Positions 40,338-46,151 of a DNA stretch of 64,000 bases are shown here, piece after piece. The stretch is from Salvelinus alpinus (lineage: Eukaryota; Chordata; Actinopteri; Salmoniformes; Salmonidae): the NCBI RefSeq assembly GCF_045679555.1, contig NC_092120.1, positions 10,032,305 through 10,096,304 on the forward strand, read 5' to 3'. The notes under the pieces are model-generated. The model ran no database searches. It saw nothing but the letters and a program-made list of their open reading frames with translations, and had not been told where the DNA came from. Each line of letters begins with the position of its first letter. The first letter of the stretch is position 1. Made by a program: the position numbers and the translations under genes.

Positions 40338-40655
40338 AGAGAACACTGAAGGTAAATCATTGGCATAATGATTTGAGTGTGTGGAATAGATTTGTAGTTG
40401 TAAACACAATTTACGAGTGTGTAACTGATGAGTTGTGAACATTAAATAATCATCTGTAGTTGTAAGCACATTCTCAAACGTGTAACTGATGAGTTTGTAG
40501 TTCTAGTTCTAATATTTGCGAGCATTAATTGCCTTGGATTAATTGCATCTGTACACCTGCGCATGTCAATTTCCCGCACTCAGACTTTTGGCAGTGCTTT
40601 AGCGCCCTACCAAAGACAGTGGTTTTGAAACTCTGTGGCCCTACCGGGACAGATG

Positions 40656-42971
40656 CGTGCGTGCTTCTAGGCAGAGTTGCAAAGAAAAAGCCATATCTCA
40701 GACTGACCAATAAAAAGAAAAAGATTAAGATGGGCAGAAGAACACAGACACTCGACAGAGGAACTCTGCCTAGAAGGCCAGCATCACGGAGTCACCTCTT
40801 CACTGTTGACATTGAGACTGGTGTTTTGCAGGTACTATTTAATGAAGCTGCCAGTTGAGGACTTGTGAGGCGTCTGTTTCTCAAACTAGACACTCTAATG
40901 TACTTGTCCTCTTGCTCAGTTGTGCCCCAGGGCCTCCCACTCCTCTTTCTATTCTGGTTAGAGACAGTTTGCGCTGTTCTGTGAAGGAAGTAGTACACAG
41001 CGTTGTACCAGATCTTCAGTTTCTTGGCAATTTCTCGCATGGAATAGCCTTTATTTCTCAGAACAAGAATAGACTGATGAGTTTCAGAGCAAAGTTATTT
41101 GTTTTTGGCCATTTTGAGCCTGTAATCAAACCCACAAATGCTGATGCTCCAGATACTCAACTAGTCTAAAGAAAGCCAGGTTTATTTCTTTTTAATCAGA
41201 ACAACAGTTTTCAGCTGTGCTAACATAATTGCAAAAGGGTTTTCCAATGATCAATTAGCCTTTTAAAATGATAAACTTGGACTAGCTAACACAACGTGCC
41301 ATTGGAACACAGGAGTGCTCTACTTTCCGGCTACCGGGATAAATCAAATAAATAAACTTCAGTTAGTGCTAAATACGGCTGCTAGAATCCTGACTAGAAC
41401 CAAAAAATGTGATCATATTACTCCAGTGCTAGCCTCCCTACACTGGCTTCCTGTTAAGGCAAGGGCTGATTTCAAGGTTTTACTGCTAACCTACAAAGCA
41501 TTACATGGGCTTGCTCCTACCTATCTTTCCGATTTGGTCCTGCCGTACATACCTACATGTACGCTACGGTCACAAGACGCAGGCCTCCTAATTTTCCCTA
41601 GAATTTCGAAGCAAACAGCTGGAGGCAGGGCTTTCTCCTATAGATCTCCACTTTTATGGAATGGTCTGCCTACCCATGTGAGAGACGCAGACTCGGTCTC
41701 AGCCTTTAAGTCTTTATTGAAGACGAATCTCTTCAGTAGGTCCTATGATTGAGTGTAGTCTGGCCCAGGAGTGTGAAGGTGAACGGAAAGGCTCTGGAGC
41801 AACAAACCGCCCTTGCTGTCTCTGCCTGGCCAGTTCCCCTCTCTCCACTGGGATTCTCTGCCTCTAACCCTATTACAGTGGCTGACTCACTGGCTTACTG
41901 GTGCTCTTCCATGCCGTCCCTAGGAGGGGTGCGTCACTTGAGTGGATTGAGTCACTGACGTGGTCTTCCTGTCTGGTTTGGCGCCCCCCTTTGGGTTGTG
42001 CCGTGGCGGAGATCTTGTGGGCTATACTCGGCCTTGTCTCAGGATGGTAAGTTGGTGGTTGAAGATATCCCTCTAGTGGTGTGGGGGCTGTGCTTTGGCA
42101 AAGTGGGTGGGGTTATATCCTGCCTGTTTGGCCCTGTCCGGGGGTATCATCGGACAGGGCCACAGTGTCTCCTGACCCCTCCTGTCTCAGCCACCAGCAT
42201 TTATGCTGCAGTAGTTTATGTGTCGGGGGGCTAGGGTCAGTCTGTTATATCTGGAGTATTTCTCCTGTCTTATCCGGGGTCCTGTGTGAATTTAAGTATG
42301 CTCTCCCTAATTCTCTCTTTCTTTCTTTCTTTCTCTCTCTCGGAGGACCTGAGCCCTAGGACCATGCCTCAGGACTACCTGGCATGATGACTCCTTGTTG
42401 TCCCCAGTCCACCTGGCCGTGCTGCATCTCCAGTTTCAACTGTTCTGCCTGCGGCTATGGAACCCTGACCTGTTCACTGTGATTACTATTATTTGACCAT
42501 GCTGGTCATTTATGAACATTTGAACATCTTGGCCATGTTCTGTTATAATCTCCACCCGGCACAGCCAGAAGAGAACTGGCCACCCCTCATAGCCTGGTTC
42601 CTCTCTAGGTTTCTTCCTAGGTTTTGGCCTTTCTAGGGAGTTTTTCCTAGCCACCGTGCTTCTACACCTGCATTGCTTGCTGTTTGGGGTTTTAGGCTGG
42701 GTTTCTGTACAGCACTTTGATATATCAGCTGATGTAAGAAGGGCTATATAAATACATTTGATTTGATGGTTGCTGATAATGGGCCTCTGTACGCCTATGT
42801 AGATATTCCATAAAAAATCAGTCGTTTCCAGCTACAAAGGTCATCTACAACATTAACAATGTCTACACTGTTTTTCTGATCAATTTGATGTTATTTTAAT
42901 GGACAGAAAATGTGCTTTTCTTTCAAAATCAAGGACATTTCTAAGTGAGCCCAAACCTTTGAATGGTGGTG
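40656..42971 (-). mobile_element. Tc1-like transposon, left end lost, split by a LINE
   Basis: The minus strand encodes a Tc1 transposase N-terminal half in broken frames (MREIAKKLKIWYNAVYYFLH at about 41040; SSLRNRRLTSPQLAASLN near 40880). The right terminus ends at 42971 next to TA and matches the termini of the element at 17850-18470. The left terminus is missing. Positions 41318-42765 are a LINE inserted into it. Confidence 0.82.
41318..42765 (+). mobile_element. LINE 3' end (L2-type), nested in Tc1
   Basis: Encodes the RT C-terminal region typical of L2-like LINEs: LVLNTAARILTRTKK, then LHWLPVKARADFKVLLLTYK, ALHGLAPTYLSDLV and FSYRSPLLWNGLP, stopping at about 41750. A 1-kb 3' UTR ends in 'aatacatttgatttgatg'. 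Comparison with the related Tc1 copy at 17850-18470 shows where Tc1 sequence stops (after GGAGTG) and resumes (ATGGTTGCTG), so the boundaries are precise. Confidence 0.87.
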
Positions 42972-43077
42972 TATGTTCAGCTTCACACATGCCACTTGAT
43001 TGGGAACTATTATTGTTGGCTTGCATAGCATTTTATGTGTATTTGTGTAGTAATATTTATCCTACCTTCCTGTGCAG

Positions 43078-43439
43078 TGGCTGAGGTTAATGATAGGCTA
43101 CTGGAGGGCCACCACAAGCTGATGAACCTGGAGTGCTCATGGAATGACCTCATGTATGATCAGTACCACATGGGCAGCAAGAACACGCACAACATGAACC
43201 TCATTCCAAACTACTTTGGCAAGATGGAGGGCCTGTCGGACGACCTGGTCAAGCAACTGTGGATAGTGCTGCAGTGCGCCATGGGCAAGGCTTCCCAAAC
43301 CATTACAACACCTTGACAGGGTCTTCAAGCCCTACCACAAAACTGTGTCCGTGAGGGTGCAGGAACTGACTACAGAGGACCTGACGGCCAAAAAGGTTGT
43401 GTACCGCCTCACCTGGGTCCTCAATTCATATTTACAAAA
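43078..43439 (+). pseudogene. exoc3: Exocyst complex component 3 gene fragment, fused exons
   Basis: EXOC3 (Sec6) is a subunit of the exocyst, which tethers secretory vesicles at the plasma membrane. The fragment starts after an acceptor-like CCTGTGCAG, reads HHKLMNLECSWNDLMYDQY, then GLSDDLVKQLWIVLQCAM (about 43215-43285), and then changes frame to FPNHYNTL and VRVQELTTEDLTAKKV with LTWVLNSY, ending at a donor-like GTAAGT at 43440. In human EXOC3, as I recall it, these two blocks are about 100 residues apart; here they are joined with a frameshift. It is therefore a broken genomic piece with intron borders, not a full gene or a simple retrocopy. It lies inside the TIR element. An exoc3-like paralogue as source is possible. 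Confidence 0.75.
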
Positions 43440-43959
43440 GTAAGTCTGTACTGCGCTCTCTGTGACTCTTGTAGCATCAGTGATATCTAGGCACCAATCC
43501 AATCATACCTTTCTATTCTAATGTTTCTGACAGTGGCTGGAACTACATGCACAATAACACAATAATAACATTTGGTTTGGTGCCCAGATAAAAAAAGAAA
43601 AAAAAGATGATACATATCGTAATATTATTTTTGCGCTAGTTGGCTGTACCTACACCGAAACTTTTATATTTTCTCCCATATTTTTGTAAAATAGGGAGCA
43701 ACACTTGTTTTCAGAACTTTTATTTCCGTGACTGATCAAAACTCATTTTCTCATGGCTCTCTGCAGAAAACAATATGGTGAGCATTATGTTTGGAACGCA
43801 ATAAAATCCCAGTATCGAATTGCAATAAATATAGAATAGGAGAGTGGGGACACACAATTGTAAATGGTTTAGATAGGGTTTTACATTAATTAAAGGGCAG
43901 TACAGATTCACAAAATGCAGTTAATGTCAAAGCTGAACAAATAGATTTCTATCTTCAGT

Positions 43960-45880
43960 CGTGCTTCTACTAAGACTCCAGATCTAACTGGATGGCATTC
44001 TGTCAGTTGTTCGTTCTTAGCAGAACTCCTTTTCTAATGATTATGCTAGCTACTGTAGCTAACTATGGCTCCATAACTTTACCTAGTCAATTTCAGTCGC
44101 TAGCATCAGACTCCAACTCTAGTTACAAACTCTTAATAACAATGACTTGGACAATAGCTTCCAAAAACATTAAAAGGCATAAAAAAAGAATGCTACCTAG
44201 CCATAAAAGAAAGACATTTAAACTTAACAGCTGGGCTTCTTTGGTGGACATTGCGCAATCAGTCTCATCGTGGTTGGGGAAAAAGGAAACTGACCCCACC
44301 ACCTATTAGCCCTCTCTAAAATAAACACCACACATTCCACTATGTAACCCCACATAGTCCTACTCCAGACAAACAGTCTGAGAGGACATAACACTACCAC
44401 TCAACACCCCGTGCAACTGTCCTGCAGTAAATCCTTGCAATCCCAAGTACTTCTCTGCCGCTGCCACTACAACCTCTATTTTATGTGACTTTTGCCACAC
44501 AGTTAACAACCATGGCTATAAATGCTAAAAAGCCCACCTTACTGAAGCACATATTTTTCACTCTCTCTTGATCTCTGCCTACTCACAGGAATCCTCTCAG
44601 GTTCCCTCACCCTGTACCTATCTTCCTCTACTATTCTCTTCACTGCTTTGCCATATGATACTTTTTGTACTTCTCTAACCCTGGCAACCTCAAGCTGCCT
44701 TTCTCTCTCTGGACACCTCTGATCTATAAAACACCTGATCACTCCCACAACTTTCTCCACCGATACCACACATTCGTTTGTCTCATGCCCTCCTACACAC
44801 TGCTGCAATATGGCCATAACCTTGACACCTTAAACACCGTAATATATTCAGAACATAAACTCCCACGGGATAACTGACACTTCTTACCTTGACCTTATCT
44901 GGTAATGATTCTGCATCAAAACTCAGCATGACAGATAATGTCTTCTCAGTTTCCTCACCGGATCTACGTCTCATCAAGCGGCGGGCGTCAGACACCGGAA
45001 TCTTCAATTTCAACTGCTCCTCCTCAACACCTAACGCCACACCCGTTATCACTCCCCTCAATGGCGCCCTGCTCCGTAGAGCAAAGCATGTCACAACTCT
45101 TGTCCCTAATCTCGTAATCCAGAGCGCCCTCTCCCTCTGGGTGGAGGAAACACAGTAAATCATCACGAGTCCACTCAGAAGTTACCTTCACCATCTCAAC
45201 AATCCCCAACCTCTCCTCCACCCAACCTGACACCACATATGGATCAACCAAACAGCAACGATCCATTCTCTACAAATCTCACTCCAACTGGGCCAAAATC
45301 ATCTATATCATCCTTGGGATGAGGCCAGAACGCCACAGGTACTTCACCCTCACGCTCAACAAGTTCCATCTCTGAACTACTAGAGCACATTTCCTTGTTT
45401 TTGCACATGACGCCCACCGTCCTCACCTTACTACTTCCCTCTACACTCAAATTTTTCTCAGCAATCATCACTGCACCTGCCACCACCTTTAATTCATCTT
45501 CACTCTCGTCATGTTCCATTTCCTCCTCAAGCTCTTCCAAAAGTTGTGCGATCCTCCATTCCATATTCACTCAAAAAATATTCTGTCTCTTTTTTTCTTG
45601 TCCATCTTCTCCTTCACCAGATCTCTCAGAAGGCCTTTGCAATCCCCCACTCCATGTTTATTCATAAATGACTTCCTTCCTTATTTCCTTTTCCGCCATC
45701 TTCCACTAGCCTACTCACATCCAAGCGGCCTTGGCAGGTGGTTGCGTCAGACAACAAGGCCGATGCATGTGAGCTGTCACCAAACAACCAGTGTACTGGT
45801 CTATGAAAATCTCATCTGATTGGTTAGAAGAAACAGGTCCCCCCCTCCCAGAGCTCTAGCTCTATCTCTCCTTGCTTGCA
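43960..45880 (-). mobile_element. LINE 5' part with gag-like ORF1, decayed
   Basis: Minus-strand frames carry a LINE ORF1: an acidic leader (MNMEWRIAQLLEELEEEMEH at 45570), a middle region (MVKVTSEWTRDDLLCFLHPE near 45200), and CCHC-type knuckles (LRCLRCQGYGHIAAVCRR at about 44840; QQCVGGHETNECVV at about 44800). Several frameshifts break it. Sequence upstream to 45880 looks like the 5' UTR (it contains an 'aagatggcgg' start region). Reverse transcriptase is absent, so the copy is truncated at its 3' side. Confidence 0.75.
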
Positions 45881-46151
45881 AATTCCTGTTCGGACATCTA
45901 CAAATCTTTTTGTCATGGTAGGGCGCTAAAACACTGCCAACAGTCTGAGCGTGCGAATGAAATGTGTAGCTGTACTGATGCAATTATTGCTCGTAAGTAT
46001 TAAGTTGGAAGTTTGCAAATGCGATTACAACTACAGATTTGTTTTTGTCATATTCACAACTCAGTTACACACTTGCAAATTGTGTTTACTACTACAAATC
46101 TATTCTACACGCTCAAATCATTACATAAATGATTTACCTTCATAGAGAACA

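What the first reader, a model, noticed from the sequence alone, without database searches (positions are those of the whole stretch)
40338..46151. A 5.8-kb gene-capturing transposon with perfect 8-bp target duplication
Long imperfect inverted arms (about 240 bases) flanked by AGAGAACA on both sides enclose an exon-intron fragment of exoc3 and other elements, with no transposase of the outer element. Elements that carry host gene pieces between inverted repeats are well known in plants (Pack-MULEs) but little described in fish. This may be a family that spreads exocyst exons.
Basis: partly seen in the sequence, partly recalled or inferred. Interest (0 to 1): 0.8.

Follow-up and report, generated by a model that had tools for sequence, protein, structure and literature searches.

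The report
Ancient exoc3-carrying fish transposon family
This is one old, battered copy of a mobile DNA family that once picked up a large piece of the host's exocyst gene exoc3 and spread it to many places in a fish genome, before part of that genome was duplicated.

Summary
Window 40346-46143 is a transposon copy with an exact 8-bp target duplication (AGAGAACA) and long inverted arms. The arms recur across the genome (40 and 60 scored match pieces), and 14 of 19 arm-bearing loci read carry exoc3 sequence. The same breakpoint between transposon arm and exoc3 exon 1 occurs in 14 arms of 12 loci (of 19 scanned), so one capture was followed by spread. The 8-bp duplication recurs, decayed, at three more sites (6, 5, 5 of 8 bases; cross-pairs mean 1.8); three eroded copies show none. 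The capture is genomic DNA with introns: pieces of exons 1-5, 8 and 10 of 12. In two copies exoc3 exons lie inside both inverted arms. Copies evolve neutrally, but a coding-constrained branch separates their ancestor from the functional gene. Two insertions, this one included, are shared with a duplicated chromosome region, so they predate that duplication. No transposase of the element was found; its superfamily is unassigned. It works like a multicopy Pack-TIR, closest to Drosophila Ssk-FB4, but is older, more numerous, and carries host exons within the arms.

The parts
40338..40345 (.). left target-site duplication AGAGAACA
   Evidence: tested against controls
46144..46151 (.). right target-site duplication AGAGAACA
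40346..40620 (+). surviving left arm (outer terminal inverted repeat); inner part lost
   Evidence: recurs in genome
45731..46143 (-). outer right arm
43839..44275 (-). inner right arm, including exoc3 intron-1 sequence and the junction to exon 1
43946..43971 (-). end of exoc3 exon 1; the transposon/exoc3 breakpoint lies at its upstream side
   Evidence: (26 nt, 92% to host exon 1, E 0.005) and junction list
42971..43560 (+). captured exoc3 stretch: end of intron 2, exon 3 (43078-43439, internally deleted), start of intron 3
40640..42986 (.). later insertions: Tc1-like element (helix-turn-helix ORF 40792-41094 minus, matches below Pfam's cut-offs) with another repeat nested in it; they replace the left inner arm and exoc3 exon 2
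   Evidence: boundaries approximate, seen by comparison with the C4 copy; the name Tc1-like is partly recalled
43614..43838 (.). repeat of other origin, also in the C4 copy; many genomic matches
44276..45730 (-). inserted piece with open frames 45570-45244 and 45181-44783 minus (CCHC-like stretch) in the right arm; shared with the C4 copy
   Evidence: no Pfam match, naming it a non-LTR retroelement ORF1 is recalled

Best explanation
A non-autonomous DNA transposon with long, foldback-like arms and 8-bp target duplications once captured a large genomic piece of an exoc3 gene, from the last 19-25 bases of exon 1 to at least the start of exon 10 of 12, introns included. Exoc3 exons 1-3 came to lie in both inverted arms in some copies. 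Transposase acting in trans (not found; inferred) then moved it to about eleven or more sites, probably in a burst, before the duplication of the chromosome segment that holds two of the insertions. Since then the copies tested have decayed as neutral sequence and were filled with younger insertions. Shown: arms, 8-bp duplications, single shared breakpoint, DNA-level capture, neutral decay, age relative to the duplication. Inferred: cut-and-paste transposition in trans, a burst, and how the capture happened (template switching or gap repair).
For: Ends recur as 40 and 60 scored match pieces, eight of the places as inverted pairs 4-18.5 kb apart. Four copies with both ends clear have 8-bp flank matches 8, 6, 5, 5; twelve cross-pairs average 1.8 (0-4); lengths 7 and 9 give no signal. 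Fourteen of 19 arm-bearing loci carry exoc3 sequence. Same arm/exon-1 junction in 14 arms of 12 of 19 loci scanned, plus C9 and C15:46368k by alignment. Among the flanks of 20 loci compared, only two pairs of loci match at the insertion point, so the other sites differ. The copies form one group apart from both functional genes (support 100). Introns and splice sites are collinear with the host gene. Both flanks of the window copy match the C4 copy at 89-91%, and C4:43178k and C35:9975k share flank and body at 86-96%. The host gene is Sec6 family PF06046, E 1e-46.
Against: Only the window copy has a perfect duplication. Three further copies with eroded right ends show none (L016 1, L015 2, L012 1 of 8). 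No transposase was found in the fetched copies, and an empty site could not be tested because the genome search did not complete. Of 37 exoc3 places listed, 16 have no listed arm within 20 kb (one of them, C9, has inner arm sequence), and 4 of the 21 with an arm are not in the usual same-strand order. Five of 19 arm-bearing loci showed no counted exoc3, though each was read for 10 kb from one end only. In L012 only the last few arm bases before the junction agree with the others. Support inside the copy group is mostly weak. For loci with only one known end, a shared insertion cannot be wholly excluded. Copy counts come from capped searches.
Confidence: 0.87

Rival explanations
1. Dispersal by segmental duplication of an exoc3 pseudogene that happened to lie beside an inverted repeat, without transposition.
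For: Two pairs of loci really are duplicated segments with shared flanks. Many exoc3 places lack a listed arm (16 of 37).
Against: No other pair among the flanks compared matches at the element boundary, and three other sites carry their own degraded 8-bp duplications exactly at the arm ends. The junction is shared but the outside sequence is not. No arm sequence was found beside the functional genes in the stretches read.
Confidence: 0.05
2. The exoc3 gene was a maintained cargo: the transposon carried a functional exoc3-like gene for a long time before it decayed.
For: The branch between the functional gene and the copies' consensus is strongly codon-constrained (13, 6, 51 differences at positions 1, 2, 3 of 149, 151, 147 sites; no stop; p 3e-14), longer than the split of the two functional genes (1, 1, 22). 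Large part of the gene, with splice sites.
Against: The constrained changes may all have happened in the functional-gene branch and in a host donor gene before capture. Exon 3 has the same internal deletion in all 11 loci where both of its sides were found (12 names, L037 lies in the L025 locus). The 18 copies tested look neutral since (181, 141, 177 of 1889, 1910, 1850).
Confidence: 0.08
3. The copy is an isolated composite of nested transposons in which the arms and the exoc3 piece met by chance in this window.
For: The window copy is indeed heavily nested.
Against: The same arm plus exoc3 order and breakpoint recur in 12 of 19 loci scanned.
Confidence: 0.01

Closest known systems
Ssk-FB4 of Drosophila (multicopy Pack-TIR on the foldback element FB4; Tan et al. 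2021, PMC8277862: abstract, passages and sections 7, 8 and 9 read)
   Same: non-autonomous element with long (~700 bp) repetitive inverted arms; nearly whole host gene captured as DNA; one chimeric structure at several sites with different target duplications; transposase unknown
   Different: FB4 duplications are 9-10 bp, here 8; Ssk-FB4 is polymorphic and possibly functional at 3 loci, here about eleven or more sites, old and decayed; here host exons lie inside both arms in two copies
Pack-TIRs of vertebrates (mostly hAT and Tc1/mariner based; same paper)
   Same: host sequence between inverted repeats of DNA transposons; three multicopy cases in frog, one in alligator
   Different: nearly all are single copy; the frog example is 291 bp; here a multi-exon gene piece on an unassigned long-armed element
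Pack-MULEs and MULEs with multiple long inverted repeats in plants (Ferguson and Jiang 2012, PMC3310237, abstract and outline seen)
   Same: long arms, gene fragments carried and amplified
   Different: no Mutator transposase link shown here; of seven MULE-domain places in this genome, three 3.3-kb loci were compared with these arms and show no similarity, but the ends of those elements may lie outside the stretches held

Membership tests
Pack-TIR (Tan et al. 2021) | non-transposon sequence flanked by terminal inverted repeats of a DNA transposon | tested here: met
Pack-TIR (Tan et al. 2021) | parental copy identified and not itself beside the transposon | tested here: inconclusive
   no arm sequence in the stretches read at functional C30 and C23, but the copies' ancestor diverged from both by a long constrained branch, so the direct donor is not identified
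Pack-TIR (Tan et al. 2021) | target-site duplications differing between sites (transposed, multicopy) | tested here: met
   8, 6, 5, 5 of 8 at four sites; three eroded copies show none
Mutator-like (MULE) | Mutator transposase in an element with the same ends | tested here: inconclusive
   PF10551 found at 7 places; 3 loci of 3.3 kb compared with the arms, no similarity, ends possibly outside
Mutator-like (MULE) | long inverted repeats and 8-11 bp duplications (range recalled) | tested here: met
   not specific to MULEs
Kyakuja-Dileera-Zisupton | KDZ transposase in an element with the same ends | not tested
   the search with PF18758 did not complete
hAT | 8-bp duplication with short inverted repeats and hAT transposase (recalled) | tested here: inconclusive
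   8 bp met, arms far longer than usual; transposase not searched genome-wide
Foldback elements | long, internally repetitive inverted arms | tested here: inconclusive
   arms long: matching segments add up to about 1.2 kb in L010_11 and 1.5 kb in L013_14; internal direct repeats weak (36 nt at 81%, 25 nt at 84% in one arm; next to none in the window's left arm)

The most novel reading that the evidence does not exclude
The element was a gene-bearing transposon: it carried a working, selectively maintained exoc3 paralogue (perhaps a lost duplicate of the gene, or one acquired from another fish) and later collapsed into foldback-like copies whose arms hold exoc3 exons in inverted orientation, able to give double-stranded RNA against the host gene.
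Probability: 0.08. Interest if true: 0.85.

Novelty: new variant of a known kind. Interest (0 to 1): 0.6.

Why it matters
Multicopy capture of a host gene by a DNA transposon is rarely reported in animals: the survey of 100 genomes gives four such cases plus one fly family. This one is in a fish, spread to about eleven or more sites, is old enough to be dated against a segment duplication, and put host exons inside the inverted arms. It gives a datable natural record of what happens to a gene spread this way (neutral decay in the copies tested), and it warns that exoc3-like exons in such a genome are mostly transposon cargo, not genes.

Tried and rejected
Pfam and PDB searches with the window exon alone gave nothing, nor did the C4 exon 2; the gene was identified through the functional C30 locus (PF06046; PDB matches TNFAIP2 and SEC6). 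The C37 locus was first taken as the host gene and rejected because its exons carry stops and frameshifts. The surveys of open frames for a transposase (at least 90 aa, 75 aa; both outputs show only part of the lists; ten frames sent to Pfam) showed Tc1-like and retroelement frames and one OGFr-like exon; a transposase in short exons would be missed. MULE transposase loci showed no shared ends in the stretches held. The termini scan was too loose to use and was replaced. Paper searches; for exoc3 with transposon and salmon and for gene pieces in salmonid transposons the listings gave nothing relevant. Only the two papers named were opened.

Rows dropped: one search left out the two functional genes, the matches to query 615-781 (a common repeat), secondary rows of the same places, and some weak rows. 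One search used 20 sequences with at least 180 aligned sites (18 copies, 2 functional genes); C9 and C4:83038k were left out as too short. One search used the same 18 copies. One search scanned 19 loci for the junction; L024, L026 and L027 were not in that scan. A 36-nt intron-3 match in L027 (86%) was not counted as exoc3.
Full report
What is there. The window is C35:10032305-10096304 of a 2.37-Gb genome in 928 contigs. That it is a salmonid is my inference from its size, its Tc1-like content and two nearly equal exoc3 genes; no tool named the species. At 40346-46143 lies an element flanked by AGAGAACA on both sides. Its ends read CTGAAGGTAAATCATTGGCATAATGATTTGAG and, inverted, ATGAAGGTAAATCATTTATGTAATGATTTGAG; the inverted pairs run on inward in register.

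The family. The left arm gives 40 match pieces and a better preserved arm (C6) 60. Several pieces belong to one arm, and both searches are capped. Eight places, the window included, pair up as inverted ends 4-18.5 kb apart. I read the window copy and 18 further arm-bearing loci. Common termini are ATGGAGGTAAATCATTGACATAATGATTTGAG.

Target duplications. Four copies have both ends clear. Their 8-bp flanks match at 8 (window), 6 (C6), 5 (C20) and 5 (C8) of 8 positions. Twelve cross-pairs of left and right flanks from different copies give 0-4, mean 1.8, and comparing 7 or 9 bases loses the signal. Random 8-mers reach 5 or more in about 3% of draws. Three copies with eroded right ends gave 1, 2 and 1 (all).

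Different sites. I compared the outward flanks of 20 loci with each other. At the element boundary only the window and C4:43302k copies match, and C4:43178k with C35:9975k; one other match, 309 nt at 82%, lies 630-1190 bases away from the ends. For loci with one known end, the other side could not be compared, and the end position of L044 is a guess.

exoc3 cargo. The functional genes are at C30 and C23. C30 has twelve exon-like open stretches in order and a Sec6 domain, PF06046, E 1e-46 for exon 3; C23 was read for exons 1-3 and is 98-100% identical there in protein. Of the 19 arm-bearing loci, 14 hold exoc3 sequence (L020 only the end of exon 1); for the other five (L018, L019, L024, L026, L027) 10 kb from one end were read. 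Across copies I find the end of exon 1, exons 2 and 3, the start of 4 and exon 5, and in one copy only (C20) the starts of 8 and 10, in host order with intron sequence. Exons 6, 7, 9 and 12 were not found, exon 11 only weakly in two copies. The capture was therefore of genomic DNA. In all 11 loci where both sides were found, about 285 bp of host exon 3 are missing; only C37 and C31:14243k keep part of that stretch.

One capture. The transition from transposon arm to exoc3 exon 1 has the same breakpoint in 14 arms of 12 loci out of 19 scanned, and by alignment also at C9 and C15:46368k. In L012 only the last few arm bases agree. Counting the window and C4 copies as one insertion, that is eleven sites among the 12. 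No arm sequence was found in the stretches read at either functional gene. In a tree of 20 sequences all copies group apart from both functional genes with support 100; branching inside is mostly unresolved, as expected of a burst.

Exons in the arms. In C6 (L010_11) and C20 (L013_14) the junction and exons 2-3 occur in both arms in inverted orientation: 75% over 469 nt in C6; 81% over 646 nt and 83% over 381 nt in C20. Of 37 exoc3 places listed, 21 have a listed arm within 20 kb, and in 17 of these the exons run inward from an arm on the same strand. Three of the four exceptions belong to the C4:43178k/C35:9975k insertion, whose right outer end was not found in the stretches read; the fourth is C5.

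Age. The C4 copy shares both flanks with the window copy at 89-91% and also its inserted right-arm piece; its right end is deleted. A second insertion is shared by C4:43178k and C35:9975k (96% over 131 nt of flank, 86-90% over the body). Both insertions predate the duplication of this segment, probably the salmonid genome duplication (recalled as roughly 80-100 million years ago). Arms of different loci are 77% identical at the median of 136 comparisons, against 86% and 91% for the two duplicated pairs, so the spread is older than the duplication.

Selection. Against their own consensus, 18 copies differ at 181, 141 and 177 of 1889, 1910 and 1850 sites at codon positions 1, 2, 3: close to neutral, with a slight deficit at position 2 (p 0.02). 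The consensus differs from the C30 gene at 13, 6 and 51 of 149, 151 and 147 sites without a stop (p 3e-14), whereas C30 and C23 differ at 1, 1 and 22. So copies decayed freely after the spread, but a long constrained coding history separates their ancestor from the present genes. The donor was thus probably a diverged exoc3 gene not seen here (an old paralogue or one from another fish), or a gene kept working inside the element. The data do not decide.

Mechanism. The anatomy is that of a non-autonomous transposon mobilised in trans. No transposase of its own was found (partial surveys). Long arms and 8-bp duplications fit several superfamilies; seven MULE-domain places exist, and the three compared with the arms over 3.3 kb showed no similarity. 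I leave the superfamily open.

The window copy. The left inner arm and exon 2 are replaced by a Tc1-like element with a nested repeat; exon 3 with splice sites survives at 43078-43439; the right arm holds the exon 1 scrap at 43946-43971 and is split by an inserted piece that looks like part of a retroelement.

Comparison. The nearest described case is Ssk-FB4 (PMC8277862, sections 7, 8, 9 read): long repetitive arms, near-whole gene, shared chimeric structure, different target duplications. That survey found four multicopy cases in reference genomes. The present family is larger, older, in a fish, and has host exons in its arms; I rate it a new variant of a known kind.

Noticed in passing
G000:C37:3934737 and C37:3973106 (L041): two inverted degenerate exoc3 stretches about 38 kb apart with equal scores, without listed arms; L041 keeps exon 3 sequence that the other copies lost and branches at the base of the copies with weak support
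   Followed up: partly
L024:8008-8478 (minus), C2:23112350-23122250: an OGFr_N-like open exon (E 2e-31) within 10 kb of one transposon end; possibly another gene piece or a host gene
   Followed up: no
G000:C25:15911125, C36:532976, C36:16936958, C4:55947332, C18:126562, C39:8597592: places with 703-758 aa open frames holding a MULE transposase domain (three compared: 99.8% identical): a young Mutator-like family or a multicopy gene
   Followed up: partly
L015:791-2408 and L028:4425-5753: long coding-like minisatellites in two of the loci, open in several frames
   Followed up: no
window 43614-43762: common repeat with more than twenty genomic matches, apparently unrelated to exoc3
   Followed up: no
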